Assembly (NCBI RefSeq): GCF_003991565.1 | Contig: NZ_CP032819.1 | Coordinates: 3,410,001 to 3,474,000, forward strand | Origin: Butyricimonas faecalis | GTDB lineage: Bacteria; Bacteroidota; Bacteroidia; Bacteroidales; Marinifilaceae | DNA length: 64,000 bases | Reading direction: 5' to 3' | Shown here: one piece after another, positions 37,797 to 62,230 of the stretch | Position numbering within the stretch: the stretch's first letter is position 1 | Layout of the letters: each line of letters starts with the position of its first letter | Made by a program: the position numbers and the translations under genes | The notes under the pieces: generated by a model | Databases searched by the model: none | What the model saw: only the letters and a program-made list of their open reading frames with translations | Told to the model about the DNA's origin: nothing

Positions 37797-37820
37797 AAGA
37801 GGAGGGATACCTCTTTTTTT
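37797..37820 (+). terminator. Intrinsic terminator between ECF sigma and fecR (locus 2)
   Basis: AAGAGG (37797-37802), a 7-nt loop, CCTCTT (37810-37815) and a T-run up to 37820. The spacing to the fecR start at 37852 is 31 nt. Confidence 0.7.
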
Positions 37821-37851
37821 ATTTTGAAGTGTCACCTCAATATAAATAGGC

Positions 37852-39072: not shown

Positions 39073-39097
39073 AAAGCAGTTTTGCAAAAAGATAAAT

Positions 39098-39153
39098 AAA
39101 AAGACAGGATATTGGCCGTATCCCGTCTTTTTCCCGGAAAAACCGGAATTGTT
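39098..39153 (+). promoter_or_regulatory. Conserved two-hairpin RNA element between fecR and susC (locus 2 copy)
   Basis: Hairpin 1: arms 39098-39111 and 39119-39132 with loop TTGGCCG and one internal A-C mismatch. Hairpin 2: CCGG (39134-39137), AAAAA, CCGG (39143-39146), followed by AATTGTT. The element begins 77 nt before the susC start. Compared with 58676-58730, three pairs of hairpin 1 differ and each change is compensated on the other arm; the loop TTGGC and the A-C mismatch are unchanged. Confidence 0.75.
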
Positions 39154-39174
39154 TCATTAAATATTGACAAATGT

Positions 39175-42100: not shown

Positions 42101-42528
42101 TGGCTTATAAAGGGTTTATATTGACTGTTGGTTTTGGCGTGAAATGGGGAGGTAAACAGTTTAATAGTACATTGGCAAACAAAACGGAAAACGCTTACTT
42201 GATTCTTAATCAGGATCGTCGCGTGTTATCGGATACTTGGCAGAAACCGGGTGATATTGTTCCTTACAAGAAGTTGATGTTGAATTCTGCGAGTACGAAT
42301 ACTTTTCCTTGTGATGCTTTTGTCCAAAAGGATAACGTGTTCCAGTGTACGAATATTAATGTTTCGTATAATTTCTCGGATCAATTTTGCCGAAAGTTAG
42401 GACTTAAAGGTTTGTCGCTAGGTGCGAATCTTTCGGATGTTTTTTACATTTCAACTGTTAAACGGGAACGGGGGACAAGTTATCCGTTTTCTCGTAACCC
42501 GATTTTTTTTCTTTCACTTTCATTCTAA
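39175..42528 (+). CDS. SusC/RagA-family TonB-dependent receptor with STN domain (locus 2)
   Basis: A 1117-aa outer-membrane importer. The start at ATG 39175 (MKKNWMHDLPW) is chosen because the same start context, TACAAATGTATGAAAAAA-like, recurs at 58754. The signal peptide ends at SASVYGQ. Next come an STN domain (about 50-120, ARVTLHLKNASFEEVVKVL), a CarboxypepD_reg-like domain (VKGIVKDKKGELLPGVTI), the plug with TonB-box-like EEVVVTGIFN and GSRGANGVVVITS, and a ~700-residue barrel ending NPIFFLSLSF. No frameshift here. It pairs with the SusD 12 bp downstream; substrate unknown. Confidence 0.94.
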   Translation: MKKNWMHDLPWRGRLWKTCLIMKFLVLLLFVAALPLSASVYGQEARVTLHLKNASFEEVVKVLEKATSYTFLYRDHQVANIKELNLEYTDVDIKVVLDACLKGTGLTYRLMDNTIVIQHVAVTSSDTLSKVTVKGIVKDKKGELLPGVTIRVKGTTLGFVTNVKGKFDIDLPKRDSLVLIFSFVGYKQQEIAVKKDNKPLTIVLVEDLQEVEEVVVTGIFNKPKESFTGAVTAVTKEDIKRNFSRNLLQTLSNLDPSFRIVENNAYGSDPNVLPEIQLRGASTFANVQDLQLATRAELNLPLFILDGFEVSLERVQDLNNEDIENITILKDASATSIYGSRGANGVVVITSLVPKAGTLKASYRGSVKLEIPDLSTYDLLNAKEKLDLEYRLGAWDAEAYQDLYRELKEKVDNGLDYDWLSLPVRTGVGQNHSLNVMGGNEEWRFSANLAYDETIGVMKGSDRKNFNGSLNLSYQTKKLMVSENLAIGTNNNANSPYGTFSDYVAMNPYWTPYDDNGKLIENYDHPLTTSANSKKENPVYNKYIGNWNKTRYTNVRNSTSVRYNFTENFYLVGTLGLSRNFSQADNFVPPSHKQFAGKEVNQKGRFGRTETETNQWQGRLNLNYTNTFNEKHMLTLGGSGEIEEKKEERLSWAGTGFSNDNIDFPSMALGYGDNTYPTGSKNTTRRIALIFSGNYYYDMRYFFDVNFNANGSSSFGEDSRWATFWSVGAGWNISNEEFFIEYVPFIQWLKVKGSYGVSGNMGFSPEDAMAVYTLDTENDYMSRFGAYLKAFGNSTLKWQNTYQLNLGVELHTWNRRLQFEFSYYDKLTNNTVAEMLLPISHGFGTAKANSGSIRNKGWDAKVTVNLFHNPNRGFTWSVTGSFNHTKNLIEKISEGYKKFLKELNSSMYTADVYYRYREGYSMDAIYGLRTVGVDPATGQRMFLTKDEDVTFAQNAEDMVYLGDRLPKINGNLSTNLAYKGFILTVGFGVKWGGKQFNSTLANKTENAYLILNQDRRVLSDTWQKPGDIVPYKKLMLNSASTNTFPCDAFVQKDNVFQCTNINVSYNFSDQFCRKLGLKGLSLGANLSDVFYISTVKRERGTSYPFSRNPIFFLSLSF

Positions 42529-42540
42529 TTTGGAAATATC

Positions 42541-43962
42541 ATGATAAGAAAAGGTATTTATATATTATGCACGTCTTTGGCACTGGGGTGTTGTGCGTGT
42601 AACGATTGGCTTACGATTGTGCCGGAAACTACGCTTGTAGCGGATAATTTGTTTGAAACGGATAATGGTGTTCTTCAAGCTCTGGATGGTGCTTATGTTT
42701 TAGCTGCCGAGTCTATATACAAGCCTAACGGTTATATGGGTGGGGGTGGTTTTGCCGAATATTTGGCGTGTACATGGACGAACACGAATGTAGATTTAGC
42801 AGCCCACGTGTACAATTTGGATAATGCTTCGTTTGCAACCGGTCTGGATGCTGTATTCATGGCGTTTTATAAAATCATCAATTCGTTGAACCCGATGATC
42901 GAGGGATGTGATAAGAATCGGGAGAAATTGAGTGACGAGTATTATAATATAGTGAAAGGTGAGGCATTGGCTTTGCGGGCTTCGTTGCATTTGGATTTGA
43001 TACGGATTTGGGGACCGATGCCAATGCGGGTGGATGCTTCCATGGAATATTTGCCTTACGTGACACGAAATTCCATAGAGAATTACCAGTATCATACATT
43101 CAAACGGTTCATGGAGTTGTTGGTGGCAGATCTGGATGAGGCTGAGCAATTGTTGCAGAAGTCCGACCCGATTTTGAATTACCCGTCTGACGGTAGCACG
43201 GAATACACGGGATCTTGGACAGACCGGAAGAGTCATTTTAATTATTACGGAGTGTTAGGATTGCAGGCTCGTGCCCGATTGTGGATGGGGGATAAAGAAG
43301 GTGCCGTGCGTTATGCCGCGATGGTGAAAGATGCGAAAAACGAGGATGGAACGCCGAAGTTTACTTTGGCTGTGGAAGGGAATATCGGTAATAATCTTTT
43401 TTATCCGGAACATTTGTGTGGCGTGAATCAAGATAAATTTGATTACCAGCAGAGTGGTTTCAACCCGGGTATTACGATGCTCGGATATTATAATTCCAAT
43501 TACAATTCATTCGTGAACGACTTATTTGATGGGAATACAAATGATTTGAGATACAAGAGTCATTGGAGTTGGACTAGAAATCAAATGAGGCAAAATGTTC
43601 GTGTAACGAAGAAATATAATGAGATGTATCCCGGTTCTACGGCAAAACGGAATATGCCGGTGGTGCGTTTGGCTGAGATGTATCTTATTATTATGGAAGC
43701 TGGAAGTTTGAGTGAGGCGAATGTCGCTTACGAGGAGTATAGTGCGGCTCGTAATCTCACGTATACTCCAATGTCGGAATCAGATAGACAGGAGAGGGTA
43801 TTGTGGGAATATATACGGGAATTTGCAGCCGAGGGGCAAAATTTCTTCACGTATAAGCGTTTTGCCGTGAAACGGATGTTGTGGCAGAATAGTGAAGCGG
43901 AAGATTGTGGCGAGGAGCAGTATGTATTGCCATTACCCCCGAGTGAATACAAGAAAAGATAA
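42541..43962 (+). CDS. SusD/RagB-family outer-membrane lipoprotein (locus 2)
   Basis: A 473-aa lipoprotein: signal peptide MIRKGIYILCTSLALGCC, lipobox GCCAC. The mature N-terminus NDWLTIVPETTLVADNLFET, the TPR-like KGEALALRASLHLDLIRIWGP and the C-terminal WEYIREFAAEGQNFFTYKRF are typical. The C-terminus ends QYVLPLPPSEYKKR, the usual IPxxE block in altered form (PLPPSE). It forms the substrate-capture lid of SusC-2. Confidence 0.93.
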   Translation: MIRKGIYILCTSLALGCCACNDWLTIVPETTLVADNLFETDNGVLQALDGAYVLAAESIYKPNGYMGGGGFAEYLACTWTNTNVDLAAHVYNLDNASFATGLDAVFMAFYKIINSLNPMIEGCDKNREKLSDEYYNIVKGEALALRASLHLDLIRIWGPMPMRVDASMEYLPYVTRNSIENYQYHTFKRFMELLVADLDEAEQLLQKSDPILNYPSDGSTEYTGSWTDRKSHFNYYGVLGLQARARLWMGDKEGAVRYAAMVKDAKNEDGTPKFTLAVEGNIGNNLFYPEHLCGVNQDKFDYQQSGFNPGITMLGYYNSNYNSFVNDLFDGNTNDLRYKSHWSWTRNQMRQNVRVTKKYNEMYPGSTAKRNMPVVRLAEMYLIIMEAGSLSEANVAYEEYSAARNLTYTPMSESDRQERVLWEYIREFAAEGQNFFTYKRFAVKRMLWQNSEAEDCGEEQYVLPLPPSEYKKR

Positions 43963-49100: not shown

Positions 49101-50165
49101 ATGAAAAAAAGAGGTGGTTATTTGAGTATCGTTTTGATGGTTTTGTTTTGCAGTTCATGTCGGGATTTGTTTCCCGTGCAGGTTCGACAAGGGAATTTCC
49201 GTGAGGTTCTGGATGTCATGCGATTAGATGGGAAGAAAGTCTTAATCTTATTAGCCTCAAAGGATTGTAGTGTGTGTGAAGCGACAAAAGATGATTGGGC
49301 TGGAGATAAAATGTTAGTAGAAAAATTGAATAGAAACTTTCGTGTGTGGCAATTGGAAATTACTGACGAGAAGAATGCATTGATTCCTCAAGTTCTACGT
49401 TCGCTGTCTACCCCGACACTGATCATAGCAGATAGTAGTATGCGAATAGAATATTTGCATACGGGATTTATTGGAGCCGAAGGATTATCGTCTGTGTTAC
49501 AATTGTTGGAACGGGGACAGAATGTGCCTCCTCGTTTGAATGTACCTCTTTACACGTCGTATTCTTCGGATTTCTATTCTTTTTTTGAGAATGTTTTGCA
49601 GGCAGCATTTCAATTAACTTGCCCGGATACGGATACGATAATCTTGCAGAATGGGATGCTCCGGGTAAAGAAGTCATTGGATACGGAACCTTATTTTATG
49701 AATCTTTATCTCGGATGGCGATATTGCACCTTCTTTGGAGATGATAAGCAAGCCTTTGAGTACAAAGAAAGGGCGTTAAGGAATTTAGATGATTTAGATA
49801 AGTTACTTTATTGCGAGTATCTCGCTCAAATGGAATTCGGGGAGACACGAGAGACTAATGGGGAAAAGAAACGGCTTTTTGCTGATCATTATGATTTTAC
49901 AAGGGAGGCGGATGATAAAGAGACCAAGTTTGATATTGTTTACCGGAATTCGTTTGATTCTCCGATAATTATTTCTGCCATAGAAACAAGTTGCAATTGT
50001 TTGTCTTTTTCGTGGAATCGAATGCCTTTGTTGCCCGGGAAAGCCGGAGTGATAAGGGTTAAATATAAAACAACGGGGGAAGGACGGGTTTATAAAAAGG
50101 CGTATGTATTTTCCAATTTGCCGGATTCGCCTCACGAGATACAATTACGTTGTACTAATAATTAA
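49101..50165 (+). CDS. Exported thioredoxin-fold lipoprotein with C-terminal DUF1573 domain
   Basis: A 354-aa lipoprotein (signal peptide, lipobox LFCSSC). Residues 30-145 are thioredoxin-like with KVLILLASKDCSVCEATKDDW, a CxxC in the form CSVC, and STPTLIIADSS with the cis-Pro. The middle is helical (about 150-255). The C-terminus (about 265-354) is DUF1573-like: FDIVYRNSFDSPIIISAIETSCNCLSFSW, then LLPGKAGVIRVKYKTTGEGRVYKKAYVFSN. This Cys-containing domain (CNC) and its immunoglobulin-like fold usually sit alone or beside peptidases. It is first in the accessory cluster and likely handles disulfides of the Cys-rich microproteins downstream; this is inference. Confidence 0.8.
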   Translation: MKKRGGYLSIVLMVLFCSSCRDLFPVQVRQGNFREVLDVMRLDGKKVLILLASKDCSVCEATKDDWAGDKMLVEKLNRNFRVWQLEITDEKNALIPQVLRSLSTPTLIIADSSMRIEYLHTGFIGAEGLSSVLQLLERGQNVPPRLNVPLYTSYSSDFYSFFENVLQAAFQLTCPDTDTIILQNGMLRVKKSLDTEPYFMNLYLGWRYCTFFGDDKQAFEYKERALRNLDDLDKLLYCEYLAQMEFGETRETNGEKKRLFADHYDFTREADDKETKFDIVYRNSFDSPIIISAIETSCNCLSFSWNRMPLLPGKAGVIRVKYKTTGEGRVYKKAYVFSNLPDSPHEIQLRCTNN

Positions 50166-50169
50166 AGTA

Positions 50170-50769
50170 ATGAAAAAGAAACCGGATATAAGTTTTATTG
50201 TGTTTCTGGTGATTATTATTGCCGGAGGGATATATGTAAATTATTTGACAGCTTCGAGAAACTATTGGCGGGAGACGTGTCATTACCGGGAAATGGGGAT
50301 CGAGAGAATGCACGAGGGTACGGATTTCCTATTAAGATTACTTTTCGAAACGTATAAAAAGAAATGGTGGGATGGCGATTCAATCATCAGGATTCAAACA
50401 AATGAAAGGTCGGATAGTATTCATGATGATTTGCGGGATTGCATGGTGCTTTACATCGCTGGTGATATGACAGATAAATTATGGGATCAACGATTAAGTT
50501 ATATGTTGAATACGTGTAAGGATGTGGACCCGTCTCGGTTGGTTGTCGTTGCCGATGAGAAATGTGATCCGGCTTTATTTGAGATATTGAAAACTTACCC
50601 GTATCGAGTATTTGAAACTGGACCTTTAGGGAATAGATTAGGACGAGAAACCGCAATTTTTCACGTTGGAACTCAACGGCAGGTACAGGCTTATTTGATA
50701 TTGAATGATCATACGTTGAGCGTGTTGAATAATTATATGAAATTGATCCGGGATGATTATTTAAAATAG
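50170..50769 (+). CDS. Membrane-anchored exported protein, unknown family
   Basis: A 199-aa protein starting at ATG 50170 (MKKKPDISFIVFLVIIIAGG), 4 bp after the preceding gene; the longer frame from 50104 overlaps that gene. One N-terminal membrane helix (about 7-26) anchors a soluble domain with alternating strands and helices (DSIHDDLRDCMVLYIAGDMTDKLWDQRL, VDPSRLVVVADEKCDPALFEILKTY, TAIFHVGTQRQVQAYLILND). Cys at three positions. I do not recognise the family. Spacing says it is translated with the thioredoxin/DUF1573 lipoprotein. Confidence 0.7.
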   Translation: MKKKPDISFIVFLVIIIAGGIYVNYLTASRNYWRETCHYREMGIERMHEGTDFLLRLLFETYKKKWWDGDSIIRIQTNERSDSIHDDLRDCMVLYIAGDMTDKLWDQRLSYMLNTCKDVDPSRLVVVADEKCDPALFEILKTYPYRVFETGPLGNRLGRETAIFHVGTQRQVQAYLILNDHTLSVLNNYMKLIRDDYLK

Positions 50770-50826
50770 ATATAGCCATGTACCAGGCGAGGTTGGTACG
50801 GATGATTTACTTTATACTTTAAAACT

Positions 50827-51060
50827 ATGAAAAAGCAAGTGAAAAAATTAGTGGTGTTTCTTGGAGTTGCGGGAGCGTTTGTTTTAATGTCGTTTAATGA
50901 ACCGAGGTGGTTTGATGATGCCGTTGATATCGTGACGTATTGTGGACCTAATGGGCGTTTTGTTGAAATTGATTATCAGCCTAACAAGCATGCTTATTAT
51001 GGGTATTGTGAATGCCGTAATGGTTGGTTTGGCGATCGTTGTGAATTTATGCCGGAATAA
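50827..51060 (+). CDS. Secreted half-EGF-like microprotein, copy 1
   Basis: A 77-aa protein with a signal peptide (MKKQVKKLVVFLGVAGAFVL, cleavage likely near SFN or EP) and a ~50-aa mature part holding exactly four Cys (39, 61, 63, 72). The end reads YYGYCECRNGWFGDRCEF, the CxCxxGWxGxxCE signature of the C-terminal half of EGF-like domains, which is rare in bacterial secreted peptides. The mature part begins NEPRWFDDA. It is paired with a propeller gene 65 bp downstream and duplicated at 52397. Signal, adhesin or toxin-like role is unknown; small size and Cys pattern argue for a secreted, disulfide-bonded ligand. Confidence 0.75.
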   Translation: MKKQVKKLVVFLGVAGAFVLMSFNEPRWFDDAVDIVTYCGPNGRFVEIDYQPNKHAYYGYCECRNGWFGDRCEFMPE

Positions 51061-51124
51061 AAATTGAGTGTATTAAATGGTTGTTTCCTGGTGGAAATTA
51101 CCATTTGATTTTATTTTTAAGAGT

Positions 51125-52324
51125 ATGATGAATATTAGACTTTTGTTTTTTTGTTTTGTCTATTTCTTTCTTTTGGAAAGAGGCTATGGGCAAGTGAAAT
51201 CTTCCGATGTACCTGTGATTCGTCTTTGTCCGGAAGAGGCTCAGACGTTAAAGATGTCGGAATTGTTCACCGGTTACCGGGTAATGTCGTTAAAGGGGTG
51301 TTCTTACACGTGGGTGAAAAATATTTTAGAACTGGATGACCGATTTATTGCTTTGTTTGAGATAAGCCTTGGTAATAATTATATTGCAGAGTTTGATAAA
51401 TCTGGAAATTTTAAACGAAAGATAGGAAGTAATGATGATTGTGACAAGTATCATTACGTTCATGATATATTTTTTGAGTCAAACGGGACGCTTGGAGCTT
51501 ATGCTTCTTCGAATCCGGAGTACTTAAACTACTCGCTGGAAGGGAAATTGAATTATCGCCGGGCAATAAAAAATACAACCGGTATTTGGGACGAGGATTT
51601 TGCTTTGAAAGGGCGTGTGGGGAATGATTTGTATTTATGGTGTCGACGTTATCGACAAGGTAAAAATTATTCCGAAAGTTATTGGTTAAAAGTTATGACG
51701 ACTGACGGTCGTCTTGTTCGGCAATTTTTCCCCTTGAAGGGATTGAAAAACAGTGATAAAGGTTCTTTTTATCGTTATCGGGATACGATCAAATTGTATA
51801 ATGTTTATGACAGTTATATTTATTCCGTGGAAGGGGATCAAATAAGCCCAAGTTATTATGTTGATAAGGGCCAACATTCAGTTCTTCTTGATTTTGAATT
51901 GTGGTGTAAAGACAAAGAGAAAGCGAATCTGGAAGCTGGTTTACATAGTATAGATGTAAACGAAAATCGAAAATATGTAATGGGCAGTTATTTTTGGAAA
52001 GAACGGTATTATTATTTTGTACATGATAAGTCAAATGGAAAGACTTGTAATTATGTTTCGATAGATGATGATATTTTGTTCTCTTTGTCTTTCCCGATTA
52101 AATATTTCCCGTCAGTTTATTTTGATAATTGGAATAAATTTGATAATCACTATATCTATTTTTATTATCGTCCTCAGGCTTTTATCCGAAAGGTTGATCG
52201 TTTGAAAGAACATTTATCACCTTCGGCATGGGATGAATTTTGTCGGAAACATCCGGATATCATCAAAATATATCAAGAGAATGATAGAGATGCTTTTGTT
52301 ATTATCAGTTACAAGTTTCGATAG
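51125..52324 (+). CDS. Exported 6-bladed beta-propeller-like protein, copy 1
   Basis: A 399-aa exported protein. The start at ATG 51125 (MMNIRLLFFCFVYFF) is chosen since the longer frame from 51077 adds no signal. The signal peptide ends near GYGQ. The mature part starts VPVIRLCPEEAQTLKMSELF and has repeated strands (EFDKSGNFKRKIGS, YSLEGKLNYRRAIKN, MTTDGRLVRQFFPL), the pattern of 6-bladed propeller/BF3164-like proteins. It ends DEFCRKHPDIIKIYQENDRD, nearly identical in copy 2. It likely sits in the periplasm or on the surface and may bind the microprotein encoded just upstream; pairing is the only evidence. Confidence 0.75.
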   Translation: MMNIRLLFFCFVYFFLLERGYGQVKSSDVPVIRLCPEEAQTLKMSELFTGYRVMSLKGCSYTWVKNILELDDRFIALFEISLGNNYIAEFDKSGNFKRKIGSNDDCDKYHYVHDIFFESNGTLGAYASSNPEYLNYSLEGKLNYRRAIKNTTGIWDEDFALKGRVGNDLYLWCRRYRQGKNYSESYWLKVMTTDGRLVRQFFPLKGLKNSDKGSFYRYRDTIKLYNVYDSYIYSVEGDQISPSYYVDKGQHSVLLDFELWCKDKEKANLEAGLHSIDVNENRKYVMGSYFWKERYYYFVHDKSNGKTCNYVSIDDDILFSLSFPIKYFPSVYFDNWNKFDNHYIYFYYRPQAFIRKVDRLKEHLSPSAWDEFCRKHPDIIKIYQENDRDAFVIISYKFR

Positions 52325-52396
52325 CGGGGCGAACGGTGTAATATAGCCAGTACTAGGCGAGGTTGGTACGGATGATTTACTTTATACTTTAAAACT

Positions 52397-52636
52397 ATGA
52401 AAAAGCAAGTGAAAAAATTAGTCGTGCTTCTTGGAGTTGCGGGAGCATTTGTTTTGATGTCGTTTAACGAGCCGAGGTGGTTTGCAGGAATATATGATGT
52501 TAAAATGTTTTGTTCAGACCATGGCCGTTTTGTTGTGCTTGATTATAATTTGGAATGGGATGCTTATTACGGGTATTGCGTCTGTAATCCAGGGTGGTTT
52601 GGTAATATGTGTGAGTTTATGGAGGAAGATTTGTAA
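52397..52636 (+). CDS. Secreted half-EGF-like microprotein, copy 2
   Basis: A 79-aa paralog of the protein at 50827, with Cys at the same residues (39, 61, 63, 72) and end YYGYCVCNPGWFGNMCEF. The first 28 residues are identical apart from one residue. Between residues 30 and 56 the two copies differ strongly (loop between Cys1 and Cys2), while the GRFV and YYGYC segments and the Cys frame are kept. Such a pattern would fit diversifying loops on a fixed scaffold. Confidence 0.75.
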   Translation: MKKQVKKLVVLLGVAGAFVLMSFNEPRWFAGIYDVKMFCSDHGRFVVLDYNLEWDAYYGYCVCNPGWFGNMCEFMEEDL

Positions 52637-52705
52637 ATAAAATTGATGCCAAATGAATTCTTTTCTTTGAAGGAGAATCGTTTGGCTTTTAAAATATTAA
52701 ATATA

Positions 52706-53902
52706 ATGAATTTTAGGGTGCTGTTTATTTATTTACAATTGTGTTTATTTTTACAAAATGGATATAGCCAAGAGTCTTCTCTTGTTGTACCCGTGATCCG
52801 TCTTTGTCCCGAAGAGGCAATAACGTTAAGAACATCTGAATTATTTGATGGCTATCGAATATTCTCGTTAAATGGTTGTTCCTATGACAGGATGCTCGAT
52901 ATTTTAGAAGTTGGAGATCAATTTATTGCTTTATTGGAGATAAAAATGGAAGAGCGTTATATTGCGGTGTTTGATAGATACGGTCATTTCTTGCAACGGA
53001 TCGGGAATAACGTGGATTTTGATAAGAGAGTTGGCATTAATGGGATTCAGTTGGAACCAGATGGAACATTAGGTGTTTATGTAACTAGGGCTTATTTGAA
53101 TTATTCGTTAGATGGAAAATTGAATTTTCGTAGAAAGATAGAGAATTCTACAGGAATGCGGACAACAGGTTTCAGTCTACAAGGAGGTGTAGGTAATGAT
53201 TTGTATTTGTGGCGTATGTATCAACAACAGGGAAATAAAAATTCTGATAAATATTGGCTAAAGATTACAAATACTGATGGTCATACGGTTCTTCAGTTTT
53301 TTTCTTTGGTGGGACGTGAGCAAGGTGAAGAATATAGTTCTTATACATATGATGGTTGTATTAGATTGTATAATGTTTATGATAGCCATGTTTATTCTGT
53401 GGAGAAAAATCGTGTGATTCCTTGTTATTGCTTGGATAAGGGGAAACATACAACTCTTCTTGATATGGAATTATTACTCACAGATTGCGGTAAAGCTGTT
53501 CAAAAGGCGGGTATAATACATGTTAAATTGAAAGAAAATCAGAAGTATGTGATCGGGGAGTATTTTTTTAAGACGAGGTATTATTATTTTGTTCATGATA
53601 AATCCAATGGAAAGACTTCTAATTATGTTTTTGTTGATGATGATATCTTGTTTCCATCGTCTCCCCAATCTCGTCTTTTCCCATCAACTTACTTCCAGGC
53701 TTGGAGTGATTTGTATTTTGATGATTGTTATTTCAATTTTTATTATCGTCCGCAGGATTTTACCCGAAAGATAGATCGTTTGAAAGAACATTTATCACTT
53801 TCGGGATGGGATGAATTTTGTCGGAAACATCCGGATATAATCAAAATATATAAAGAGAATGATGGAGATGCCTTTGTTATAATCAGTTATAAGTTTCGGT
53901 AG
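52706..53902 (+). CDS. Exported 6-bladed beta-propeller-like protein, copy 2
   Basis: A 398-aa paralog of the protein at 51125 with the same start (VPVIRLCPEEAITLRTSELF) and the same end. ATG 52706 gives a signal peptide (MNFRVLFIYLQLCLFLQNGYSQ). The middle blades are about as long as in copy 1 but the residues differ more than at the ends. The gene lies 69 bp after its microprotein and 30 bp before the membrane fusion gene. Confidence 0.75.
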   Translation: MNFRVLFIYLQLCLFLQNGYSQESSLVVPVIRLCPEEAITLRTSELFDGYRIFSLNGCSYDRMLDILEVGDQFIALLEIKMEERYIAVFDRYGHFLQRIGNNVDFDKRVGINGIQLEPDGTLGVYVTRAYLNYSLDGKLNFRRKIENSTGMRTTGFSLQGGVGNDLYLWRMYQQQGNKNSDKYWLKITNTDGHTVLQFFSLVGREQGEEYSSYTYDGCIRLYNVYDSHVYSVEKNRVIPCYCLDKGKHTTLLDMELLLTDCGKAVQKAGIIHVKLKENQKYVIGEYFFKTRYYYFVHDKSNGKTSNYVFVDDDILFPSSPQSRLFPSTYFQAWSDLYFDDCYFNFYYRPQDFTRKIDRLKEHLSLSGWDEFCRKHPDIIKIYKENDGDAFVIISYKFR

Positions 53903-53932
53903 TTTGTAATGTTGTTATTAAAAATTGTAATT

Positions 53933-56900
53933 ATGGATGTCAGTTATATTAAATTAATGGCAAAGTACGAAGCGATACAGTTTCGTCGGGGGTGGATATT
54001 TAAGTTGTTCGCCTTGATTGTTGTGGGTATTAATGTATCACAATTGTTTATTCAGGGTAATTTTGTGAGAAACGAGTGGTATTGGATGGCTTTACCTTCG
54101 TCTTTCCCTTATTTTCAAGCCTTGTGTTTTAACATCGTGCAGGTGTTGTTCGTGATTTTTGCCGTGCATGAAGTCTTGAATCGGGAAAAACGGGATACGG
54201 AAGCATCCTTGTTGGTTCACCCGATAAGTAACGTGGAGCGAAGTTTCGGACAGGTGTTGGGAATCGCAAGGGTTGTCTTTTTGACCTGTCTAGTCTCTAT
54301 GGTATTTTCGATGTTGGTGAATCTTTTTGCGAGTGATTCTCAATTTTCTTTCTGGATATATGTTTTTTATTTTGTGACGTTAGTGTTGCCCGGCTTCGTG
54401 TTGTCGGTGGGAATGGCAATGTCGCTTTTGGTATGGGGGAAAAATCGGGTGGTGGTATCTCTGGTTTTAATACTCGTTTTTGGTGTTGTCGGGTTGTATT
54501 TGTATGATATAGGCAATGGTTTTTTTGATTTTACAACGCGTGCTCTCCCGAATATGTTTTCGGATGTGACAGGACACGTGAATCTGTGGTGTTATCTTTT
54601 GCAACGTTTGGCGTGGTTATTGGGAGGAACTGGTTTGCTGTTTCTGGCAATCGGTTTTGCAAATCGTTTACCGAATTGTTTCAAATCGGTGAAAAATACG
54701 AGGATGGTGGGTATGGTTTGTATTATTCTTTGGGCTTGCATGGGAGTTTTGTATTTTTTACCGCATATAGGGGAGATAGATGTGCGGAAAGAATATGTTC
54801 GAACATTCGAGCGATATATTGAGGAACCGACGGGAGACTTGGAGTCGTTGTCTCTGGTTTTTCGGCAATCAGGGGATTGTTTTACGGGCGATTGTGAGTT
54901 GATGTTGAAAAATACGACGGGAGAAAAGATGAACCGTCTGTTGTTGTTTTTAAATCCGGGTTTGGCAGTGAAACGAGTAATGGTTAGGGGACAGGAAGTT
55001 CCTTTCGTTAGAGATCATCAAGTATTGACCGTGGATGTGCCACTTGGCGTGAAAGATAGTGTAAAATTACAAGTGGTGTATGCCGGGAAGATAGACGGTC
55101 GTATCTGTTACTTGGATATTCCGGATGAAGAGTATTACCGGACTTCCGGGGATATTGGATTTTTCCGATTGGGAAAACAAAACGTTTTTTGGGGAGAGAA
55201 ACAAACCTTGTTGATTCCGGAGTGTTTGTGGTATCCGGTAACGTGTTCGCCAGTAAATCCTGTAATGCCTTGGGATACACGAAAGAATTTTACGCGATAC
55301 ACGTTGTCCGTGGTGGGAGAAACAGATCGAACGGTCATTTCACAAGGAGCTCAAACACGACATGGGGATACGTTGCGATTCACGAATGAAGAGCGTTTGA
55401 CGGGTATCACGTTTTGTGCAGGAGATTACGAGAAGAGGTCTGTTATGGTAGATTCTGTGTTATACTCGTTGTATTATTTTCGTGGACATGATTTTTTTTC
55501 GGAAGATTTTGATGATCCGGAGTTTAATATCGTTGAAGTATTGAAGACGAGTACGGCTTTTTTACGTGAGAATGGAACGGGATATTTTTTTAAACGATTG
55601 ACATTGGTAGAAACGGCCCTACCTTTCGCATCGTATTTTCGTAAGCAGAAAGGTGGGAGTGATCGAGTTCAGCCGGAATTACTTTTACTACCGGAATATG
55701 CAGTTACGATGGTTTCATCGAATTTTAAAAAAGCGATAAAGGCTGGAATTAAATTGGAGAGTGTGTTTTGGAGATGGACGGGAGGTAATTTCCAACATCC
55801 TTTACTCTCTTTTCGGCGTACTAGTTTTAAACCAGGAAAAATGCAATTATCAGAAGATCTCAGTGAAATGGAAGAAGTGGAAAATCCTCTTTACATTTTT
55901 CCGCTCTCAACTTATTATGTGCGAAATGTTCGCTCGGAAAAGTACCCTTTAATGGATATTTTTTTTAGTACTTTTTTTCATTCCCCTTGGGAAAGTTTAG
56001 GAGATCGAATATCATATCAAGTTTTTAATCAATATGTAGAAATGTCTGCATCGGATTATTTCTTATCAAGGACGTTGGAAGATGCAGCAAAAGATCGTAA
56101 TTTGTCGCTTGAGTTGTTAGAACAAATGGTGAAGTTAAAGTGTACTTACCTACGTAAAAGGATCTCTATGCAAGTACCAGAAGAAAAATTCAAACGATTT
56201 TTGGAGCAGGCTTCTTCCTTTAGTCGTTTTCGAGAATTTTCTCTTGATGATTTTGAGACAATGTTTCGGGATTCTTTAGGGGTAGATTTTGAGCCTTTCT
56301 TTAGGGAAATATACATGGTAGAGGGATTACCAGTTTTTGAAGTAAGGGATGCAAAGATGAGGAAAATAGAGACAGACGAGTATTCCGGGTTTCAGATTTC
56401 CTGTAAAGTGTTGAATTCGGGAAAGACAGATGGTATATTTTCTTTTGGAGGATTATTAGGCTATATGTCTAAAGAAGAGGTGCTAAAGGATTATTATCTT
56501 CCGGCAGGAAAAGCGATGGAAATATGGTTACCATGTGATAAGAAGCCATTGTATGTAGGATATTGTACAAATATATCCGGAAATCGCCCGATGGACATTT
56601 GGGTGAATTGTGATGTTGAAAATGAAATTATTATGGAATGTACAAGTGGCGAACGGGAAATTGATTCGAAGTATTTTAGAAAATTGAATGATGAAATCGT
56701 TGTGGATAATCAAGATTCGGGGTTCTCGTTAGTGGACGCTGCTTCACGAAACAAGATGTATGCATTTTTTCATGGAAATAAAGAGAAAGGAAAGTATAGA
56801 AAACCAATTTCGGCCCCCGGGATGTGGCGTCTTGTTTATAATAAAATTTTTTATGGAGAACCCGAACGTTCCGCTTATTACAAAATTTGTGGGACTGGGG

Positions 56901-57232
56901 AATCCAAGGCAATCTGGCGGGCAAATCTTCCCGAAAACGGATTATACGAGGTGTTCGTGGCGAATCAAAGTGATTACGCTGCATCTTCTATATTTACGTT
57001 TATATCGGGAGTGCATTCTTTGCCCCGGGTGTATCAATATTACACGTTGCATCATGCAGAAGGAGTGGAAGAGATTCAACAAAAGATGAATCCCCGAAGG
57101 AACGTGGAATGGCTTTCTTTAGGAAATTTTCGTTTTAATAAAGGAGAAGCAAAATTAGAGTTGTCAGATAAAGGCGTTGAAGGACAGCGAGTTTTTGCAG
57201 ATGCGGTCAAGTGGGTTCGAATAAGAGAATAA
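53933..57232 (+). CDS. ABC-2-like membrane protein fused to an inactive M1-like region and a golvesin-like C-terminus
   Basis: A ~1100-aa protein; ATG 53933 (MDVSYIKLMAKYEA) is the family-like start, ATG 53909 would add eight residues. Residues 1-290 have about seven membrane helices (e.g. GLYLYDIGNG-flanked segments) in an ABC-2 permease arrangement. Residues 300-820 match the extracytoplasmic part of permease/M1-aminopeptidase fusions (DRVQPELLLLPEYAV), but the HEXXH zinc motif is missing; FFHSPWESLGDR and YVEMSASDYFLS mark the degenerate site. The last ~145 residues read EWLSLGNFRFNKGEAKLEL and VFADAVKWVRI, golvesin/xanthan-lyase-like. No ATPase gene accompanies it. It ends the accessory cluster; export of or response to the microproteins is a hypothesis. 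Confidence 0.7.
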   Translation: MDVSYIKLMAKYEAIQFRRGWIFKLFALIVVGINVSQLFIQGNFVRNEWYWMALPSSFPYFQALCFNIVQVLFVIFAVHEVLNREKRDTEASLLVHPISNVERSFGQVLGIARVVFLTCLVSMVFSMLVNLFASDSQFSFWIYVFYFVTLVLPGFVLSVGMAMSLLVWGKNRVVVSLVLILVFGVVGLYLYDIGNGFFDFTTRALPNMFSDVTGHVNLWCYLLQRLAWLLGGTGLLFLAIGFANRLPNCFKSVKNTRMVGMVCIILWACMGVLYFLPHIGEIDVRKEYVRTFERYIEEPTGDLESLSLVFRQSGDCFTGDCELMLKNTTGEKMNRLLLFLNPGLAVKRVMVRGQEVPFVRDHQVLTVDVPLGVKDSVKLQVVYAGKIDGRICYLDIPDEEYYRTSGDIGFFRLGKQNVFWGEKQTLLIPECLWYPVTCSPVNPVMPWDTRKNFTRYTLSVVGETDRTVISQGAQTRHGDTLRFTNEERLTGITFCAGDYEKRSVMVDSVLYSLYYFRGHDFFSEDFDDPEFNIVEVLKTSTAFLRENGTGYFFKRLTLVETALPFASYFRKQKGGSDRVQPELLLLPEYAVTMVSSNFKKAIKAGIKLESVFWRWTGGNFQHPLLSFRRTSFKPGKMQLSEDLSEMEEVENPLYIFPLSTYYVRNVRSEKYPLMDIFFSTFFHSPWESLGDRISYQVFNQYVEMSASDYFLSRTLEDAAKDRNLSLELLEQMVKLKCTYLRKRISMQVPEEKFKRFLEQASSFSRFREFSLDDFETMFRDSLGVDFEPFFREIYMVEGLPVFEVRDAKMRKIETDEYSGFQISCKVLNSGKTDGIFSFGGLLGYMSKEEVLKDYYLPAGKAMEIWLPCDKKPLYVGYCTNISGNRPMDIWVNCDVENEIIMECTSGEREIDSKYFRKLNDEIVVDNQDSGFSLVDAASRNKMYAFFHGNKEKGKYRKPISAPGMWRLVYNKIFYGEPERSAYYKICGTGESKAIWRANLPENGLYEVFVANQSDYAASSIFTFISGVHSLPRVYQYYTLHHAEGVEEIQQKMNPRRNVEWLSLGNFRFNKGEAKLELSDKGVEGQRVFADAVKWVRIRE

Positions 57233-57502: not shown

Positions 57503-58672
57503 ATGAGAGATTTGACGAATTATTTGCATATACCTTATTTGATCGTGAAAGATTTGCATGGAGAGCTTTCCGATAAGGAGCGATTAACTTTGGAACAATG
57601 GTTGGATGAGAGGGAAGATAATAAATTATTGTTTGAAAAGATTCGTAATCAGAGAGATTCTCAACAACGAATTCAGTTAGTTAAGAAGTTGCACAAGAAT
57701 TCTGCTTGGAAACGAGTGGATCGGGCAACCGGGGGGAAGAGGTCGTGGATCACGTATTGTATCCGATATGCTGCTGTTGTCGTGTTTGTTATTTCCAGTA
57801 TTTTTTTCGTGATGTATTTACTGCCGGAAAAATCTTCCCAAATGCCGTTACATTCAGAAGTCCGTATTAATCCGGGTAGCATAAAGGCCGAATTGATTCT
57901 GGCAGACGGACAACATCTGCCTCTTGACGGGAAAGAGGAAAATTCGATATTATCGGATCAAGATGGAGTGACAATCATAAAGGGGAATGCAGGGATTCGT
58001 TATGAAAGTAAGGATTCAGACGGAAAGTTAGCATACCATGAGTTGAGAGTTCCAAGAGGTGGTGAATTTTCTCTCGTGCTGGAAGATGGAACTGAAGTGT
58101 ATATTAATTCGGAGACAAAATTCCGTTACCCCGTGAAATTTGAAGAATCAGAGCGTCGGGTTTTCCTAGTGGGAGAGGCTTATTTTAAAGTAAAGCGGGA
58201 TGAGAATAGGCCTTTTCGTGTGGAGATGGAAGGGAATCGGATAGAGGTACTCGGAACCGAGTTTAATGCTCGATATTACTTGGATGAGGATAAACAAATG
58301 ACCACGCTTGTTTCGGGGAAAGTTAAATTTATTTCAGGGAAAGACAAGAGTCTGGAACTCTTCCCCGGAGAACAAGCAATTCTTACGAGCAAAGGGGAGC
58401 TGGTTAGGAAAAGTGTGGATGTTAATTTATATACCGCTTGGAAAGATGGGAATTTTGTATTTCGTAAACAACGTTTGGAAGAGGTGTTGAACACGTTGGC
58501 TCGTTGGTATGATGTGGAGGTTTTTTATGAAGATGTTTCTCGGAAAGATGTTGTGTTTACGGGAAACATGAAGCGGTTTGAACATTTTGAGGAGATTATT
58601 GATCTTTTGCGGATGACGGGGGATACGGATTTTGAAATAAAAGGGAAAAATATTTTCGTGAGACGTAAATAG
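57503..58672 (+). CDS. FecR-family anti-sigma factor without adjacent sigma gene (locus 3)
   Basis: A 389-aa protein closely similar to the FecR at 37852: N-terminal DLTNYLHIPYLIVKDLHGELSDKE, transmembrane helix about 88-107, LRVPRGGEFSLVLEDGTEVYINSETKFRYPVKF, and the DUF4974 end LEEVLNTLARWYDVEVFYED...NIFVRRK. The usual ECF sigma gene is absent; the 270-bp region upstream holds a remnant-like palindrome instead. It may act with the sigma factor at 37175. susC follows 81 bp downstream behind the conserved RNA element. Confidence 0.93.
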   Translation: MRDLTNYLHIPYLIVKDLHGELSDKERLTLEQWLDEREDNKLLFEKIRNQRDSQQRIQLVKKLHKNSAWKRVDRATGGKRSWITYCIRYAAVVVFVISSIFFVMYLLPEKSSQMPLHSEVRINPGSIKAELILADGQHLPLDGKEENSILSDQDGVTIIKGNAGIRYESKDSDGKLAYHELRVPRGGEFSLVLEDGTEVYINSETKFRYPVKFEESERRVFLVGEAYFKVKRDENRPFRVEMEGNRIEVLGTEFNARYYLDEDKQMTTLVSGKVKFISGKDKSLELFPGEQAILTSKGELVRKSVDVNLYTAWKDGNFVFRKQRLEEVLNTLARWYDVEVFYEDVSRKDVVFTGNMKRFEHFEEIIDLLRMTGDTDFEIKGKNIFVRRK

Positions 58673-58675
58673 AAA

Positions 58676-58730
58676 AGGACAAGGTATTGGCACTACCTCG
58701 TCCTCTGGATCCGGTTAAACCGGAATTGTT
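58676..58730 (+). promoter_or_regulatory. Conserved two-hairpin RNA element between fecR and susC (locus 3 copy)
   Basis: Hairpin 1: arms 58676-58686 and 58694-58704, loop TTGGCAC, with the same internal A-C mismatch as the locus-2 copy. Hairpin 2: CCGG (58711-58714), TTAAA, CCGG (58720-58723), then AATTGTT. It starts 78 nt before the susC ATG, matching 77 nt at locus 2. Confidence 0.75.
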
Positions 58731-58753
58731 ATACTTTAAAACTTTACAAATGT

Positions 58754-61700
58754 ATGAAAAAAACAGGTAGTTGTGTCCATCTTTGGATAAGATGGCTATT
58801 AAAAAGGTTGTTAACAATGAGATTGCTAGCATTTTTTCTGTTTCTAGGTGTTGTTCCGGTTTCAGCTACGGTGTTCGGGCAATACGCCAAAGTTTCTTTA
58901 CGGGTTGAGAAAGCATCGCTTGAAAAGGTGATGGATATTCTGGAACAATCTACGGATTATAGGTTTGTTTATCAGAATAGTCAAATAGAATCTGTGCGTA
59001 ATCTGACTTTGGATTTAAAGGATACAGATATTCGGGATGTAATGAAAGAGTGCCTGAAAGGGTCTAGTTTGACATTTAATGTGGTGGGTATGAATGTTGT
59101 GATAGTACCATTGAAAGAGATGCCGTTACAACAGAACGTGAAAAAGGAGAAACAAGTAAAAGGCCGGGTAATGGACAAGGAGGGATTGCCTTTGCCTGGG
59201 GTATCTGTGATGATTGACAGTACCACGATGGGAGTAGTGACGGACGTTAATGGAAATTATGTATTAACTTATCCGGAAATGAATAATGTGCGTTTACGTT
59301 TCTCTTTTGTAGGAATGCAGACGAAATATGTGACTGTCGGGAATAATACGGTTATCAATGTGGTATTGGAGGAGGAAATAAATCGTTTGGACGAGGTTGT
59401 GGCTGTCGGTTACGGTACTACGAAAGCGAAAGATATGACGGGAGCTGTTTCCCGGCTTGGGAAAAAGGAGATTGAGACGGCTCCAATGGGCGCTTCCATT
59501 CAATCGATGTTACAGGGACGGGCTCCAGGAGTAAACGTGATGATCAGTTCTGCGTCCCCTACTTCTCCGGTGTCGGTAATTATCCGAGGATCATCATCCT
59601 TGTCGGGAGATTCGCAGCCGTTGTGGGTGATTGACGGGGTTCCGGAATATTCTGCTGGAACATCAGGAAATATTTCGAACACGTTGTATAATCTGAATCT
59701 GACAGATGTCGAGACGATAGATATTCTTAAAGATGCGTCAGCAACAGCCATATACGGTTCAAGGGCTGCCAATGGAGTGGTTCTTGTGACAACGAAACGG
59801 GGTAAAAAAGGGATGAAACCCACGTTGGAGTTCTCTGCCCGTTACGGGATTCAGACCATGAACGCGAATGATTTCGGGGTGTTGAATGCCGAGGAGTATA
59901 TTGCTTTGTCGAAAGCATCCGTACGAGCCAGTTTCTTTACAAGAGGAAGTTTGGATTATTTTACTCGGCAATATATAGATGAGACAAAATTTAATGCTAA
60001 AACGAATTACAGTCAGTTTGATTTGGAAACGCTAACGGATGATTTATTCTTGGAAGATGCTTATTATGGGGCAGATACGGATTGGTGGGATTTGATGACG
60101 CATAATGCGGCGACACAAGAGTATAGTTTGGGTATCCGCGGTGGATCGAAAGAATCTTCTTATAGTTCCTCTTTCTTTTATAAAGATCAAAAAGGAATCG
60201 TGAAAGGCGGTAGTTCAAAATTGTTGGGTGGTAGCTTTAATTTTGATGCATCTATTCGGGATGTTGTTCGTTTTAAATTGGGGTTGCGTGCCACATCCCG
60301 TGTAACAGACGATAAAGATGGCATGATCGGTACGATATTGAATATGCGTCCGGACTACCCAGCCTATACCGAGGACGGATCAATTAATATGATCAGTTAT
60401 TACGTGGAGAACCCTCTTTTTACATTAAAGAATATTAAGGAAGGAAAAGGGAAGGATTTTACCGGTTCATTAGGTTTGGAATGGGATATTATTCCCGGTC
60501 TTACTTTACGAACAAATGGAACTTTAAAGTATGGTATAAATAAGAATTTGACTTATAACCGTAAATATTATGATGATGGTATCAGTTCTTCCACGGTTTC
60601 TAAAAATGAAAGTTATACTTACGTGTGGGATAATACGTTGACTTATCTTAAAACACTGGAAGATCATAATTTAGTCGGTTTGTTGGGTTTCTCGATAGAA
60701 AAATACGAATCTGATGGATTATCAGCCTCTGGATCCAATTTTCCAGATGATGAGGTGTTAACAAACTTAGGAAGTGCAGCAACAAAGAATTCGATTGCTT
60801 CAAGTTATAATTCCAACACGTTGGTTTCAACATTTGCCCGTTTGGAATATAAATTCAAGAATCGTTATTTGGCCACGTTTACTTTCCGTGCAGACGGTTC
60901 TTCCAAGTTCGGACCGGATAAACGTTGGGGATATTTCCCATCGGGAGCTTTAGCTTGGATAATCTCCGAGGAAAACTTTTTGAAGGATTATTCTCATATA
61001 GTTTCTTATTTAAAATTGAGAGCGTCTATCGGAAAGACCGGTTCGCAAAATTTAGGCAATTATGCTTGGCGTACGTTGATGGGATCGGCAACTTATAATG
61101 ATGCTCCGGGAATTAAACCTTCTTCGTTGGGAAATGATATTTTGCAGTGGGAGTCCCAAGTGCAAAAGGAGATTGGTTTGGATTACGGTTTTTGGGATGA
61201 TCGTATTCGGGGATCTATAGGGTATTATCAGAAGAAGGTAGATAATTTGTTATATAGTGATCCGGTTCCTTATTCTTCTTCTTTCTCTTCAGTGACTCAA
61301 AATATCGGTTCTTTAAAAAATAAAGGATTCGAGTTTGATGTTAAGGTGGATATTATTAAGAATACACAAAAAGACCTGACTTGGGATTTTGATTTTAATG
61401 TGGCGAGAAATATTACGACATTGGAGAAGTTGAATAGTGAGGCCGAGTATTTCGGGGGCGGAGCTTATGACTATTTCAAGATCAAAGTGGGAGGGAAAAC
61501 GGGAATCCTGTACGGGTATAAGTACGGGGGACGTTTGATTCGGACGAATGAAGAGTTGGTTGCCTTGAAAACGGTTAATCCGGAGACTGGGCAACAGCAG
61601 TATTACCGGGATAATAATAATTACGAGCGTCCGGGTGATTTGTATATTATGGATTTGGATGGTGACGGACAGATTACGGCAGATGGCGATCGTACGGAAA

Positions 61701-62227
61701 TCGGTAATGCGAATCCGGATTTCTTCGGGGGATTTGGGACAACGCTTTATTGGAAGGGATTGATGGTGAATGCTACATTCACGTATTCGGTTGGTGCCGA
61801 TCGTTTTTATGATGAAGAAAAGAGTAGTGCCGGAGATATTAATGCATATAATGTTTCGAAAAATGTGTTGAAGTCATGGACGATGAACCCAGGGGTAGAC
61901 AGAGGTTATCCAAGGGCTATGTATTATGGCTGGGGTTCCAATTCCATTATTACGGATCGTTATGTACATGATGCTTCATTCTTAAGATTATCAGCGTTGA
62001 ATATCAGTTATCGTTTACCGAAACGATTATTCGGGTCCAGTATCGTGGATGCGATTGATCTGACATTCCAAGCCACGAATCTATTTACTTGGACAAAATA
62101 CCCGGGTATGGACCCGCAAGGAAACTTTAGCACGTCTTACAGTGCTTTTTATAATATGGGTATTGATTATAGTAGTTACCCGTCTGCTAGAACCTATAAT
62201 GTGGGAATAAAAATAACTTTAAAATAG
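58754..62227 (+). CDS. SusC/RagA-family TonB-dependent receptor with STN domain (locus 3)
   Basis: A 1157-aa outer-membrane receptor. Signal region MKKTGSCVHLWIRWLLKRL leading to ATVFGQ; STN domain (KVSLRVEKASLEKVMDILEQ), CarboxypepD_reg-like domain (VKGRVMDKEGLPLPGVSVMI), plug with DEVVAVGYGTTKAKDMTGAVS, GSRAANGVVLVTTKRGKKG, and the barrel ending YNVGIKITLK. DGDGQITADGDR near residue 975 is a typical extracellular loop (EF-hand-like). Intact, no frameshift. Works with the SusD 3 bp downstream. Confidence 0.95.
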   Translation: MKKTGSCVHLWIRWLLKRLLTMRLLAFFLFLGVVPVSATVFGQYAKVSLRVEKASLEKVMDILEQSTDYRFVYQNSQIESVRNLTLDLKDTDIRDVMKECLKGSSLTFNVVGMNVVIVPLKEMPLQQNVKKEKQVKGRVMDKEGLPLPGVSVMIDSTTMGVVTDVNGNYVLTYPEMNNVRLRFSFVGMQTKYVTVGNNTVINVVLEEEINRLDEVVAVGYGTTKAKDMTGAVSRLGKKEIETAPMGASIQSMLQGRAPGVNVMISSASPTSPVSVIIRGSSSLSGDSQPLWVIDGVPEYSAGTSGNISNTLYNLNLTDVETIDILKDASATAIYGSRAANGVVLVTTKRGKKGMKPTLEFSARYGIQTMNANDFGVLNAEEYIALSKASVRASFFTRGSLDYFTRQYIDETKFNAKTNYSQFDLETLTDDLFLEDAYYGADTDWWDLMTHNAATQEYSLGIRGGSKESSYSSSFFYKDQKGIVKGGSSKLLGGSFNFDASIRDVVRFKLGLRATSRVTDDKDGMIGTILNMRPDYPAYTEDGSINMISYYVENPLFTLKNIKEGKGKDFTGSLGLEWDIIPGLTLRTNGTLKYGINKNLTYNRKYYDDGISSSTVSKNESYTYVWDNTLTYLKTLEDHNLVGLLGFSIEKYESDGLSASGSNFPDDEVLTNLGSAATKNSIASSYNSNTLVSTFARLEYKFKNRYLATFTFRADGSSKFGPDKRWGYFPSGALAWIISEENFLKDYSHIVSYLKLRASIGKTGSQNLGNYAWRTLMGSATYNDAPGIKPSSLGNDILQWESQVQKEIGLDYGFWDDRIRGSIGYYQKKVDNLLYSDPVPYSSSFSSVTQNIGSLKNKGFEFDVKVDIIKNTQKDLTWDFDFNVARNITTLEKLNSEAEYFGGGAYDYFKIKVGGKTGILYGYKYGGRLIRTNEELVALKTVNPETGQQQYYRDNNNYERPGDLYIMDLDGDGQITADGDRTEIGNANPDFFGGFGTTLYWKGLMVNATFTYSVGADRFYDEEKSSAGDINAYNVSKNVLKSWTMNPGVDRGYPRAMYYGWGSNSIITDRYVHDASFLRLSALNISYRLPKRLFGSSIVDAIDLTFQATNLFTWTKYPGMDPQGNFSTSYSAFYNMGIDYSSYPSARTYNVGIKITLK

Positions 62228-62230
62228 GAT

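What the first reader, a model, noticed from the sequence alone, without database searches (positions are those of the whole stretch)
50785..53902. Tandemly duplicated pair: secreted four-Cys half-EGF microprotein + beta-propeller protein
Two 77-79 aa secreted proteins keep Cys at identical positions and the CxCxxGWxGxxCE ending, while the loop between Cys1 and Cys2 diverges. Each is followed by a paralogous 6-bladed-propeller-like exported protein. The 42-nt leader is identical in both copies. EGF-like half domains in a small free bacterial peptide are unusual, and the pairing suggests a ligand-receptor or ligand-carrier system. It is reminiscent in layout of NVEALA-leader peptides beside BF3164-like propellers in Bacteroides, though the sequences differ.
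Basis: partly seen in the sequence, partly recalled or inferred. Interest (0 to 1): 0.75.

Follow-up and report, generated by a model that had tools for sequence, protein, structure and literature searches.

The report
EGF-like microproteins paired with beta-propellers
A bacterium, apparently of the Bacteroidales, carries two copies of a tiny secreted protein that resembles part of an animal EGF domain, each placed directly before a gene for a six-bladed beta-propeller protein; relatives place other small cysteine-containing peptides in the same spot, which suggests peptide-plus-propeller pairs that could be tested for binding.

Summary
Two four-Cys microproteins with signal-peptide-like starts (77 and 79 aa, Cys at 39/61/63/72) each precede a PF17170 six-bladed-propeller-family protein. 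The C-terminal half reads as an EGF domain lacking the 1-3 disulfide: the best PDB sequence matches are EGF-domain proteins, and a Cys-preserving shuffle finds none, though Pfam EGF cut-offs are not reached. I found only four copies, in two genomes of one bacterial family; order and class samples add none. All four precede a propeller; in one, peptide and propeller are both broken. The layout matches NVEALA-peptide/propeller pairs in the same genome, one with a propeller homologous to the window's, but the microproteins are not NVEALA members. Of 57 family propellers fetched by Pfam, 16 have a small secreted Cys peptide directly upstream, against 2 of 125 other own-genome genes; one such peptide is a peritrophin-A protein. 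The tandem units are old paralogs with homogenised ends. I read the pair as a secreted EGF-like ligand with its own propeller partner. Binding is inferred; structure predictions were uninformative.

The parts
49101..50165 (+). lipoprotein-like protein (lipobox by eye) with thioredoxin-like N-terminal part (CSVC motif) and C-terminal DUF1573; possibly first gene of the transcription unit
   Evidence: PF07610 63.8 bits (cut-off 26.1), Thioredoxin_2 25.1 bits (below its cut-off 27); one near full-length match (residues 10-335 of 354) in another genome (G009) among 56
50170..50769 (+). 199-aa protein with hydrophobic N-terminal anchor, no family match (ORF opens at 50104; start chosen by eye)
50780..50914 (+). 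5' homogenised repeat, copy 1 (untranslated leader plus signal-peptide codons)
   Evidence: 95% identity to 52350-52484; dS 0.35 in the leader codons (18 synonymous sites)
50827..51060 (+). EGF-like four-Cys microprotein 1 (77 aa)
   Evidence: PDB sequence matches of profiles that contain it
51077..52324 (+). six-bladed-propeller-family protein 1 (PF17170); probable start 51125 or 51128
   Evidence: 53.6 bits, cut-off 22.9
52139..52324 (+). 3' homogenised repeat, copy 1 (propeller C-terminus)
   Evidence: 89% identity to 53717-53902; dS 0.14 for residues 363-402
52350..52484 (+). 5' homogenised repeat, copy 2
52397..52636 (+). EGF-like four-Cys microprotein 2 (79 aa)
   Evidence: EGF_Teneurin PF23106 20.2 bits, below cut-off 24.3; PDB matches
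52643..53902 (+). six-bladed-propeller-family protein 2 (PF17170); ORF opens at a TTG, probable start 52706
   Evidence: 26.3 bits, cut-off 22.9; 56% identical to copy 1
53717..53902 (+). 3' homogenised repeat, copy 2
53909..57232 (+). 1107-aa ABC-2-type membrane protein with Golvesin_C domain, starting 6 nt after propeller 2; no HExxH motif
   Evidence: PF25275 47.2 bits (cut-off 31.6), PF12730 21.3 bits (below cut-off 27); paralogs

Best explanation
The locus encodes two tandem, diverged versions of one envelope module. A small EGF-like peptide with two predicted disulfides (the EGF 2-4 and 5-6 pairs, lacking 1-3) crosses the inner membrane, folds in the envelope and docks on the six-bladed propeller encoded directly after it, as EGF-type modules dock on six-bladed propellers in animals. 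The upstream thioredoxin/DUF1573 protein would handle the disulfides. Shown: the genes, hydrophobic signal-like N-termini, EGF sequence character of the C-terminal half, gene-order linkage in four of four copies, joint decay of one pair, the shared layout with NVEALA peptides, and the mosaic history of the two units. Inferred: disulfide pairing, physical binding, final location, the role of the upstream gene, and the biological use (signalling, adhesion or antagonism).
For: Four of four EGF-like microproteins found are followed by a propeller: two in the window, L018 (4 nt before a 402-aa propeller about 30% identical to the window propellers) and L020, where the peptide has an in-frame stop and propeller remnants lie in separate frames. 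Linkage thus holds across strong propeller divergence, and one pair decayed together. The window propellers' next homolog in the own genome (E 1.7e-7 and 1.7e-8 to the window's, 1.3e-11 to L018's) has an NVEALA peptide directly upstream (PF14055 33.3 bits). Among 57 complete propeller loci fetched by Pfam alone, 16 have a small secreted-type peptide with at least two Cys within 150 nt upstream, against 2 of 125 non-propeller genes of the own genome (Fisher p 1.5e-7; loci not phylogenetically independent). In one search, 21 of 30 fetched NVEALA loci have a propeller directly downstream. EGF character; a shuffle control gave 0 PDB hits and three shuffles gave 0 Pfam hits. Precedent: the nidogen six-bladed propeller binds laminin gamma1 EGF-like modules (PMC11260871, passages seen).
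Against: No binding evidence. Both AlphaFold models are poor (pLDDT 55.4 and 36.4), so neither the EGF fold nor a binding surface could be checked. The family is four genes in two genomes, and the window pair arose by duplication. In one search, 41 of 57 propellers lack such a peptide, so propellers do not need one. The G041 propeller, the next-closest in another genome, shows no microprotein upstream. Pfam EGF scores stay below cut-offs. Co-transcription alone could explain linkage.
Confidence: 0.5

Rival explanations
1. Peptide and propeller are separate envelope proteins that share an operon (for example for adhesion or nutrient binding) and never touch.
For: 41 of 57 propellers lack such a peptide; the run of genes also holds unrelated proteins.
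Against: Peptides of unrelated kinds (EGF-like, NVEALA, peritrophin-A) lie directly before propellers of two Pfam families, and one pair decayed together.
Confidence: 0.22
2. The microprotein is an inter-bacterial antagonistic peptide and the propeller its cognate immunity or neutralising protein; tandem diverged units reflect specificity diversification.
For: Small peptides with conserved leaders and variable mature parts; tandem units whose ends are homogenised and middles diverged; propeller arrays in the genome with few peptides could be read as orphan partners.
Against: No PADLOC match for 5 proteins (that library covers anti-phage systems, so it is a weak test). The mature region shows no sign of positive selection (dN 0.44, dS 1.17). 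By eye no C39-type peptide exporter lies among the neighbouring ORFs.
Confidence: 0.2
3. The microprotein acts on an animal host as an EGF-module mimic, and the propeller holds it at the cell surface.
For: Weak PDB sequence matches include EGF-family ligands such as spitz/lin-3, heregulin, betacellulin, TGF-alpha, amphiregulin and HB-EGF.
Against: Only two of the three EGF disulfides can form; the Arg before the last Cys of copy 1 is not kept in copy 2 or L018. Better matches are generic EGF repeats (scavenger receptor F1, integrin beta-3, Notch, Reelin). The NVEALA peptides scanned have no EGF match. The host of the organism is not known to me.
Confidence: 0.04
4. The EGF likeness is convergence on a short CxCxxGxxGxxC motif and the peptide has another fold (this can be true together with any of the other readings).
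For: Best local matches cover only about 16-20 residues; Pfam EGF models stay below cut-off; the fold could not be predicted.
Against: Four of four copies keep C-x(1-3)-G-x-F, then C-x-C, then C-x8-C, with Phe in what I take to be the place of EGF Cys3 (register recalled, not computed); Cys-preserving shuffles find no EGF hit.
Confidence: 0.25

Closest known systems
NVEALA peptides (Pfam PF14055) next to six-bladed propellers (PF17170 DUF5128, PF15869 TolB_like)
   Same: Small secreted-type peptide directly upstream of a six-bladed-propeller gene; the propeller beside one NVEALA peptide in this genome is homologous to the window propellers.
   Different: No PF14055 match at E<=1 and no N[VI]EALA motif in the window microproteins; the mature part is EGF-like. 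The word NVEALA gave 0 papers in the held library.
EGF-like domains (PF00008, PF07974, PF23106)
   Same: CxCxxG[WF]xGxxC ending, spacing 1 then 8 between the last three Cys, Gly and aromatic positions.
   Different: Four Cys instead of six; the whole protein is one free partial domain with a bacterial signal-like N-terminus; scores below Pfam cut-offs.
Nidogen propeller with laminin LE module (animal basement membrane)
   Same: An EGF-type module and a six-bladed propeller as partners (precedent only; PMC11260871 passages).
   Different: Animal multidomain proteins with a Tyr-Trp-Thr-Asp propeller; homology was not tested and none is claimed.
Peritrophin-A peptide + PF17170 propeller in G054 (L135), and 106-aa peptide + PF15869 propeller in G009 (L079)
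   Same: Same layout in the same bacterial family; L079 also carries a homolog of the window's Trx/DUF1573 gene and an ABC-2/Golvesin paralog.
   Different: Unrelated small proteins: CBM_14 at 52.4 bits in L135, sub-threshold CBM_14 (16.1 of 22.1 bits) in L079.

Membership tests
NVEALA (PF14055) | profile score at or above 27 bits | tested here: not met
   no match at E<=1 for the two window copies or L018; NVEALA peptides of the own genome and of G009 score 33.3, 27.2 and 27.7
NVEALA (PF14055) | N[VI]EALA-type motif after the signal peptide | tested here: not met
   sequences
NVEALA (PF14055) | gene directly upstream of a six-bladed propeller | tested here: met
   window copies, L018, L020 remnant; for NVEALA itself 21 of 30 loci by script
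EGF-like domain | Pfam score above cut-off | tested here: not met
   PF23106 20.2 of 24.3 for copy 2, 12.5 for copy 1; PF07974 14.3 and 15.0 of 22.1; L018 16.5 of 24.3; L020 piece 21.1 of 24.3
EGF-like domain | six Cys in three disulfides | tested here: not met
   four Cys in each copy
EGF-like domain | C-x-C-x8-C ending with conserved Gly and aromatic residues | tested here: met
   spacing 1 and 8 in four of four; 10 of the 11 PDB hits at E<=1 are by name EGF-domain proteins, the 11th an ant-venom peptide whose fold I recall as EGF-like
EGF-like domain | EGF fold | tested here: inconclusive
   AlphaFold2 pLDDT 55.4, pTM 0.25; no fold search run
PF17170 six-bladed beta-propeller | profile score above 22.9 bits | tested here: met
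   53.6 and 26.3 bits
PF17170 six-bladed beta-propeller | propeller fold | tested here: inconclusive
   AlphaFold2 pLDDT 36.4 with a two-row alignment
toxin-immunity pair | peptide inhibits non-immune kin, partner protects | not testable with these tools
   needs bench work

The most novel reading that the evidence does not exclude
Envelope modules of this bacterial family, and perhaps of Bacteroidales at large, follow a general scheme: an exchangeable small disulfide peptide (NVEALA-type, EGF-like, peritrophin-like) plus a dedicated six-bladed propeller that receives it. In the window lineage this reproduced the EGF-module/six-bladed-propeller pairing known from animal laminin-nidogen, so the bacterium would have a free EGF-like ligand with its own propeller receptor, in two diverging specificities kept in tandem with homogenised ends.
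Probability: 0.25. Interest if true: 0.8.

Novelty: new variant of a known kind. Interest (0 to 1): 0.55.

Why it matters
Propellers of PF17170 and PF15869 occur in many copies in some genomes of this family (up to 23 PF17170 matches in one genome), and their Pfam descriptions give no function. If the peptides encoded directly upstream are their ligands, many unexplained propellers gain a testable partner. The EGF-like version offers a compact system: two natural, tandem, diverged pairs in which specificity can be tested by crossing partners.

Tried and rejected
Recent duplication: rejected, because synonymous sites in the middle of the unit are near saturation. Silent leader cassettes elsewhere: none convincing in six genus genomes (next match E 0.015 over 24 nt). 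Structured 5' leader RNA: a 7-bp hairpin is kept with one wobble change, but neither leader folds better than shuffles (z -0.48 and 0.69), so not claimed. Wider occurrence: the order search (393 genomes) gave hits in 8 genomes besides the own one, all at E 0.001-0.008, and none of the 8 loci shows a plausible small secreted ORF there; the class search (395 genomes, E<=0.001) hit only the own genome; neither sample need contain G048. A DNA pattern for YGYCxCxxGxxGxxC in genome contigs gave 2 hits, in Rhizobiales and Azohydromonas, which I did not open (I expect about 4 by chance, own estimate); that collection may leave out the source genome. The propeller scan of genome contigs confirmed none; phage records gave none. 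PDB search with the propeller pair gave 6 hits at E 0.15-0.6, none a propeller by name. Fold searches were not run because both models are of low confidence. Literature: NVEALA gave 0 papers; five family names gave 1 paper, off-topic by title and not opened; the listed titles showed nothing on this pairing, but searches matched far more papers than were listed. Only listings were seen, except passages of PMC11260871.

Counts with caveats; 9 of 66 fetched propeller loci were dropped as incomplete or at contig ends; among its 17 positives with two or more Cys, L004 looks like a truncated propeller start and L154 looks spurious (L154 is not among the 16; L004 is); of 9 NVEALA loci scored not adjacent, 3 end at a contig edge (L100, L110, L114), 2 (L119, L120) do show a propeller next to the peptide, and 4 (L098, L099, L111, L117) do not. 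Propellers there were recognised with profiles I built from own-genome and window propellers plus L018 and L079. The one search set (8 of 30 propellers against 5 of 146 other genes) includes loci fetched because of this finding, and one of its 5 other genes follows an NVEALA peptide; one search leaves the finding's own loci out of the propeller side. Its 125 control genes come from the own genome, partly from stretches picked around ABC-2/Golvesin paralogs, while its propellers come from the whole family and are not independent. The Fisher test mixed criteria and is not used.
Full report
What is there. The window carries, on the + strand, a compact run of genes: a lipoprotein-like thioredoxin/DUF1573 protein (49101-50165), a 199-aa membrane-anchored protein (50170-50769), microprotein 1 (50827-51060), propeller 1 (51077-52324), microprotein 2 (52397-52636), propeller 2 (52643-53902) and a 1107-aa ABC-2-type/Golvesin_C protein (53909-57232). 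The scan shows no terminator-like site on the + strand between 50165 and 53902. Microproteins are 68% and propellers 56% identical. Both propellers pass the PF17170 cut-off.

What the microprotein is. The signal-peptide-like starts are nearly identical, while the mature parts differ. The C-terminal half reads YGYCxCxxGWFGxxCEF. Searches of PDB sequences return, at the top, proteins that by name hold EGF domains: scavenger receptor class F member 1 (E 2.5e-7 to 2.6e-5, raised by its repeats), integrin beta-3, Notch, selectins and EGF-family ligands. The L020 piece gives Notch 2 at 3e-4 and Reelin at 1.7e-3, and its 22 hits at E<=0.5 are all of that kind by name. Hits of other kinds appear only at E>0.5 (a methyltransferase, a phage tail fibre, an aminotransferase). 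A shuffle of copy 2 with Cys fixed gives 0 PDB hits at E<=5, and three such shuffles give 0 Pfam hits. Pfam EGF models reach at most 21.1 bits, below their cut-offs. In four of four copies the first Cys is followed by x(1-3)-G-x-F, and the last three Cys have spacing 1 and 8. I read the four as EGF Cys2, 4, 5 and 6, with Phe in the place of Cys3; this register is recalled, not computed. AlphaFold2 gave an all-beta model of low confidence.

How widespread it is. Of 56 genomes of the bacterial family, two hold it: the own genome (two copies) and G048 of another genus (L018, E 1.2e-8; L020, E 8.5e-5, with an in-frame stop). A third genome's hit (L019, E 0.009, one stop inside) shows no small ORF at the place. 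Five other genomes of the same genus lack it. Samples of 393 genomes of the order and 395 of the class add nothing convincing.

Linkage. L018 lies 4 nt before a 402-aa propeller about 30% identical to the window's. L020 is followed by propeller remnants in separate frames (matching L018 propeller residues 189-258, E 6e-8, and window propeller 2 residues 309-327, E 2e-4). So all four copies precede a propeller, and one pair decayed together.

A wider pattern. In the own genome, NVEALA peptides (PF14055) precede propellers at L014 and L016, and the L014 propeller is homologous to the window's. Of 30 NVEALA loci fetched from 48 listed matches, 21 have a propeller directly downstream by script. 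Starting instead from propellers fetched by Pfam, 16 of 57 have a small secreted-type peptide with two or more Cys within 150 nt upstream, against 2 of 125 non-propeller genes of the own genome (p 1.5e-7; caveats in Tried and rejected). Some of these peptides are not NVEALA: L135 holds a peritrophin-A (CBM_14) domain at 52.4 bits, and L139, L158, L162 and L177 have no PF14055 match at E<=1. In G009 a 106-aa peptide and a PF15869 propeller share a locus with the one near full-length homolog of the window's thioredoxin/DUF1573 gene and an ABC-2/Golvesin paralog. The peptide seems exchangeable while the propeller stays.

History of the tandem. Propeller residues 363-402 (dS 0.14) and the microprotein leader (dS 0.35, dN 0.01, few sites) are more alike than the rest (propeller blocks dS 0.68 to saturation, mature peptide 1.17); repeats of 135 and 186 nt mark these ends. 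This points to old paralogs whose ends were homogenised by recombination, which leaves the mature peptide and most of the propeller free to diverge together. Selection on the leader's nucleotides could contribute. Mature-region dN/dS is about 0.4, so constrained rather than positively selected. No further copy of the leader was found in six genus genomes.

Mechanism. My best reading is a secreted EGF-like ligand with its own propeller partner in the envelope, the upstream thioredoxin-like protein handling disulfides. Animals give a precedent: the nidogen six-bladed propeller binds laminin gamma1 EGF-like modules (PMC11260871, passages seen). Binding, localisation and use are inferred. The rivals are mere co-transcription, antagonism with immunity, and host mimicry; convergent EGF likeness could accompany any of them.

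Verdict. The layout is a variant of an existing peptide-propeller arrangement for which my searches found no functional paper; the EGF-like peptide is the new element. The weak points are the tiny family, the lack of structural confirmation and the absence of any binding data.

Noticed in passing
window 53909-57232 and own-genome loci L080-L091: The ABC-2/Golvesin_C protein gives 20 matches in the own genome and 10-19 in the five other genus members (15 in G016 of another genus), but one or none in many genomes of other genera (some matches are pieces of one gene). Of 12 own-genome paralog loci opened, five follow a small secreted-type protein (FnIII-like 121-158 aa in L081, L089, L091; 140 aa in L087, L088; by eye), and L080 follows an ABC ATPase. 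None of 14 checked sequences has HExxH.
   Followed up: partly
L084 (flipped) 6550-6858: A 102-aa peptide with a double-glycine-type leader near an HlyD-like gene and a C39-type ABC exporter, followed by an ABC-2/Golvesin paralog: looks like a bacteriocin-type export locus (names by eye).
   Followed up: no
L089, L090, L091: Three ABC-2/Golvesin paralogs are split into two overlapping ORFs rather than one fusion.
   Followed up: no
L135 (G054): A 140-aa secreted-type protein with a peritrophin-A (CBM_14) domain above cut-off, 10 Cys after the signal peptide, directly before a PF17170 propeller.
   Followed up: partly
L014, L015 (own genome 107-140 kb): A dense array of six-bladed-propeller-family proteins of both Pfam families with only a few NVEALA peptides between them.
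   Followed up: partly
window 57503-63694: A FecR-like/SusC/SusD set without a visible sigma-factor ORF of 150 aa or more directly upstream; the set at 37175-43962 has one (names by eye).
   Followed up: no
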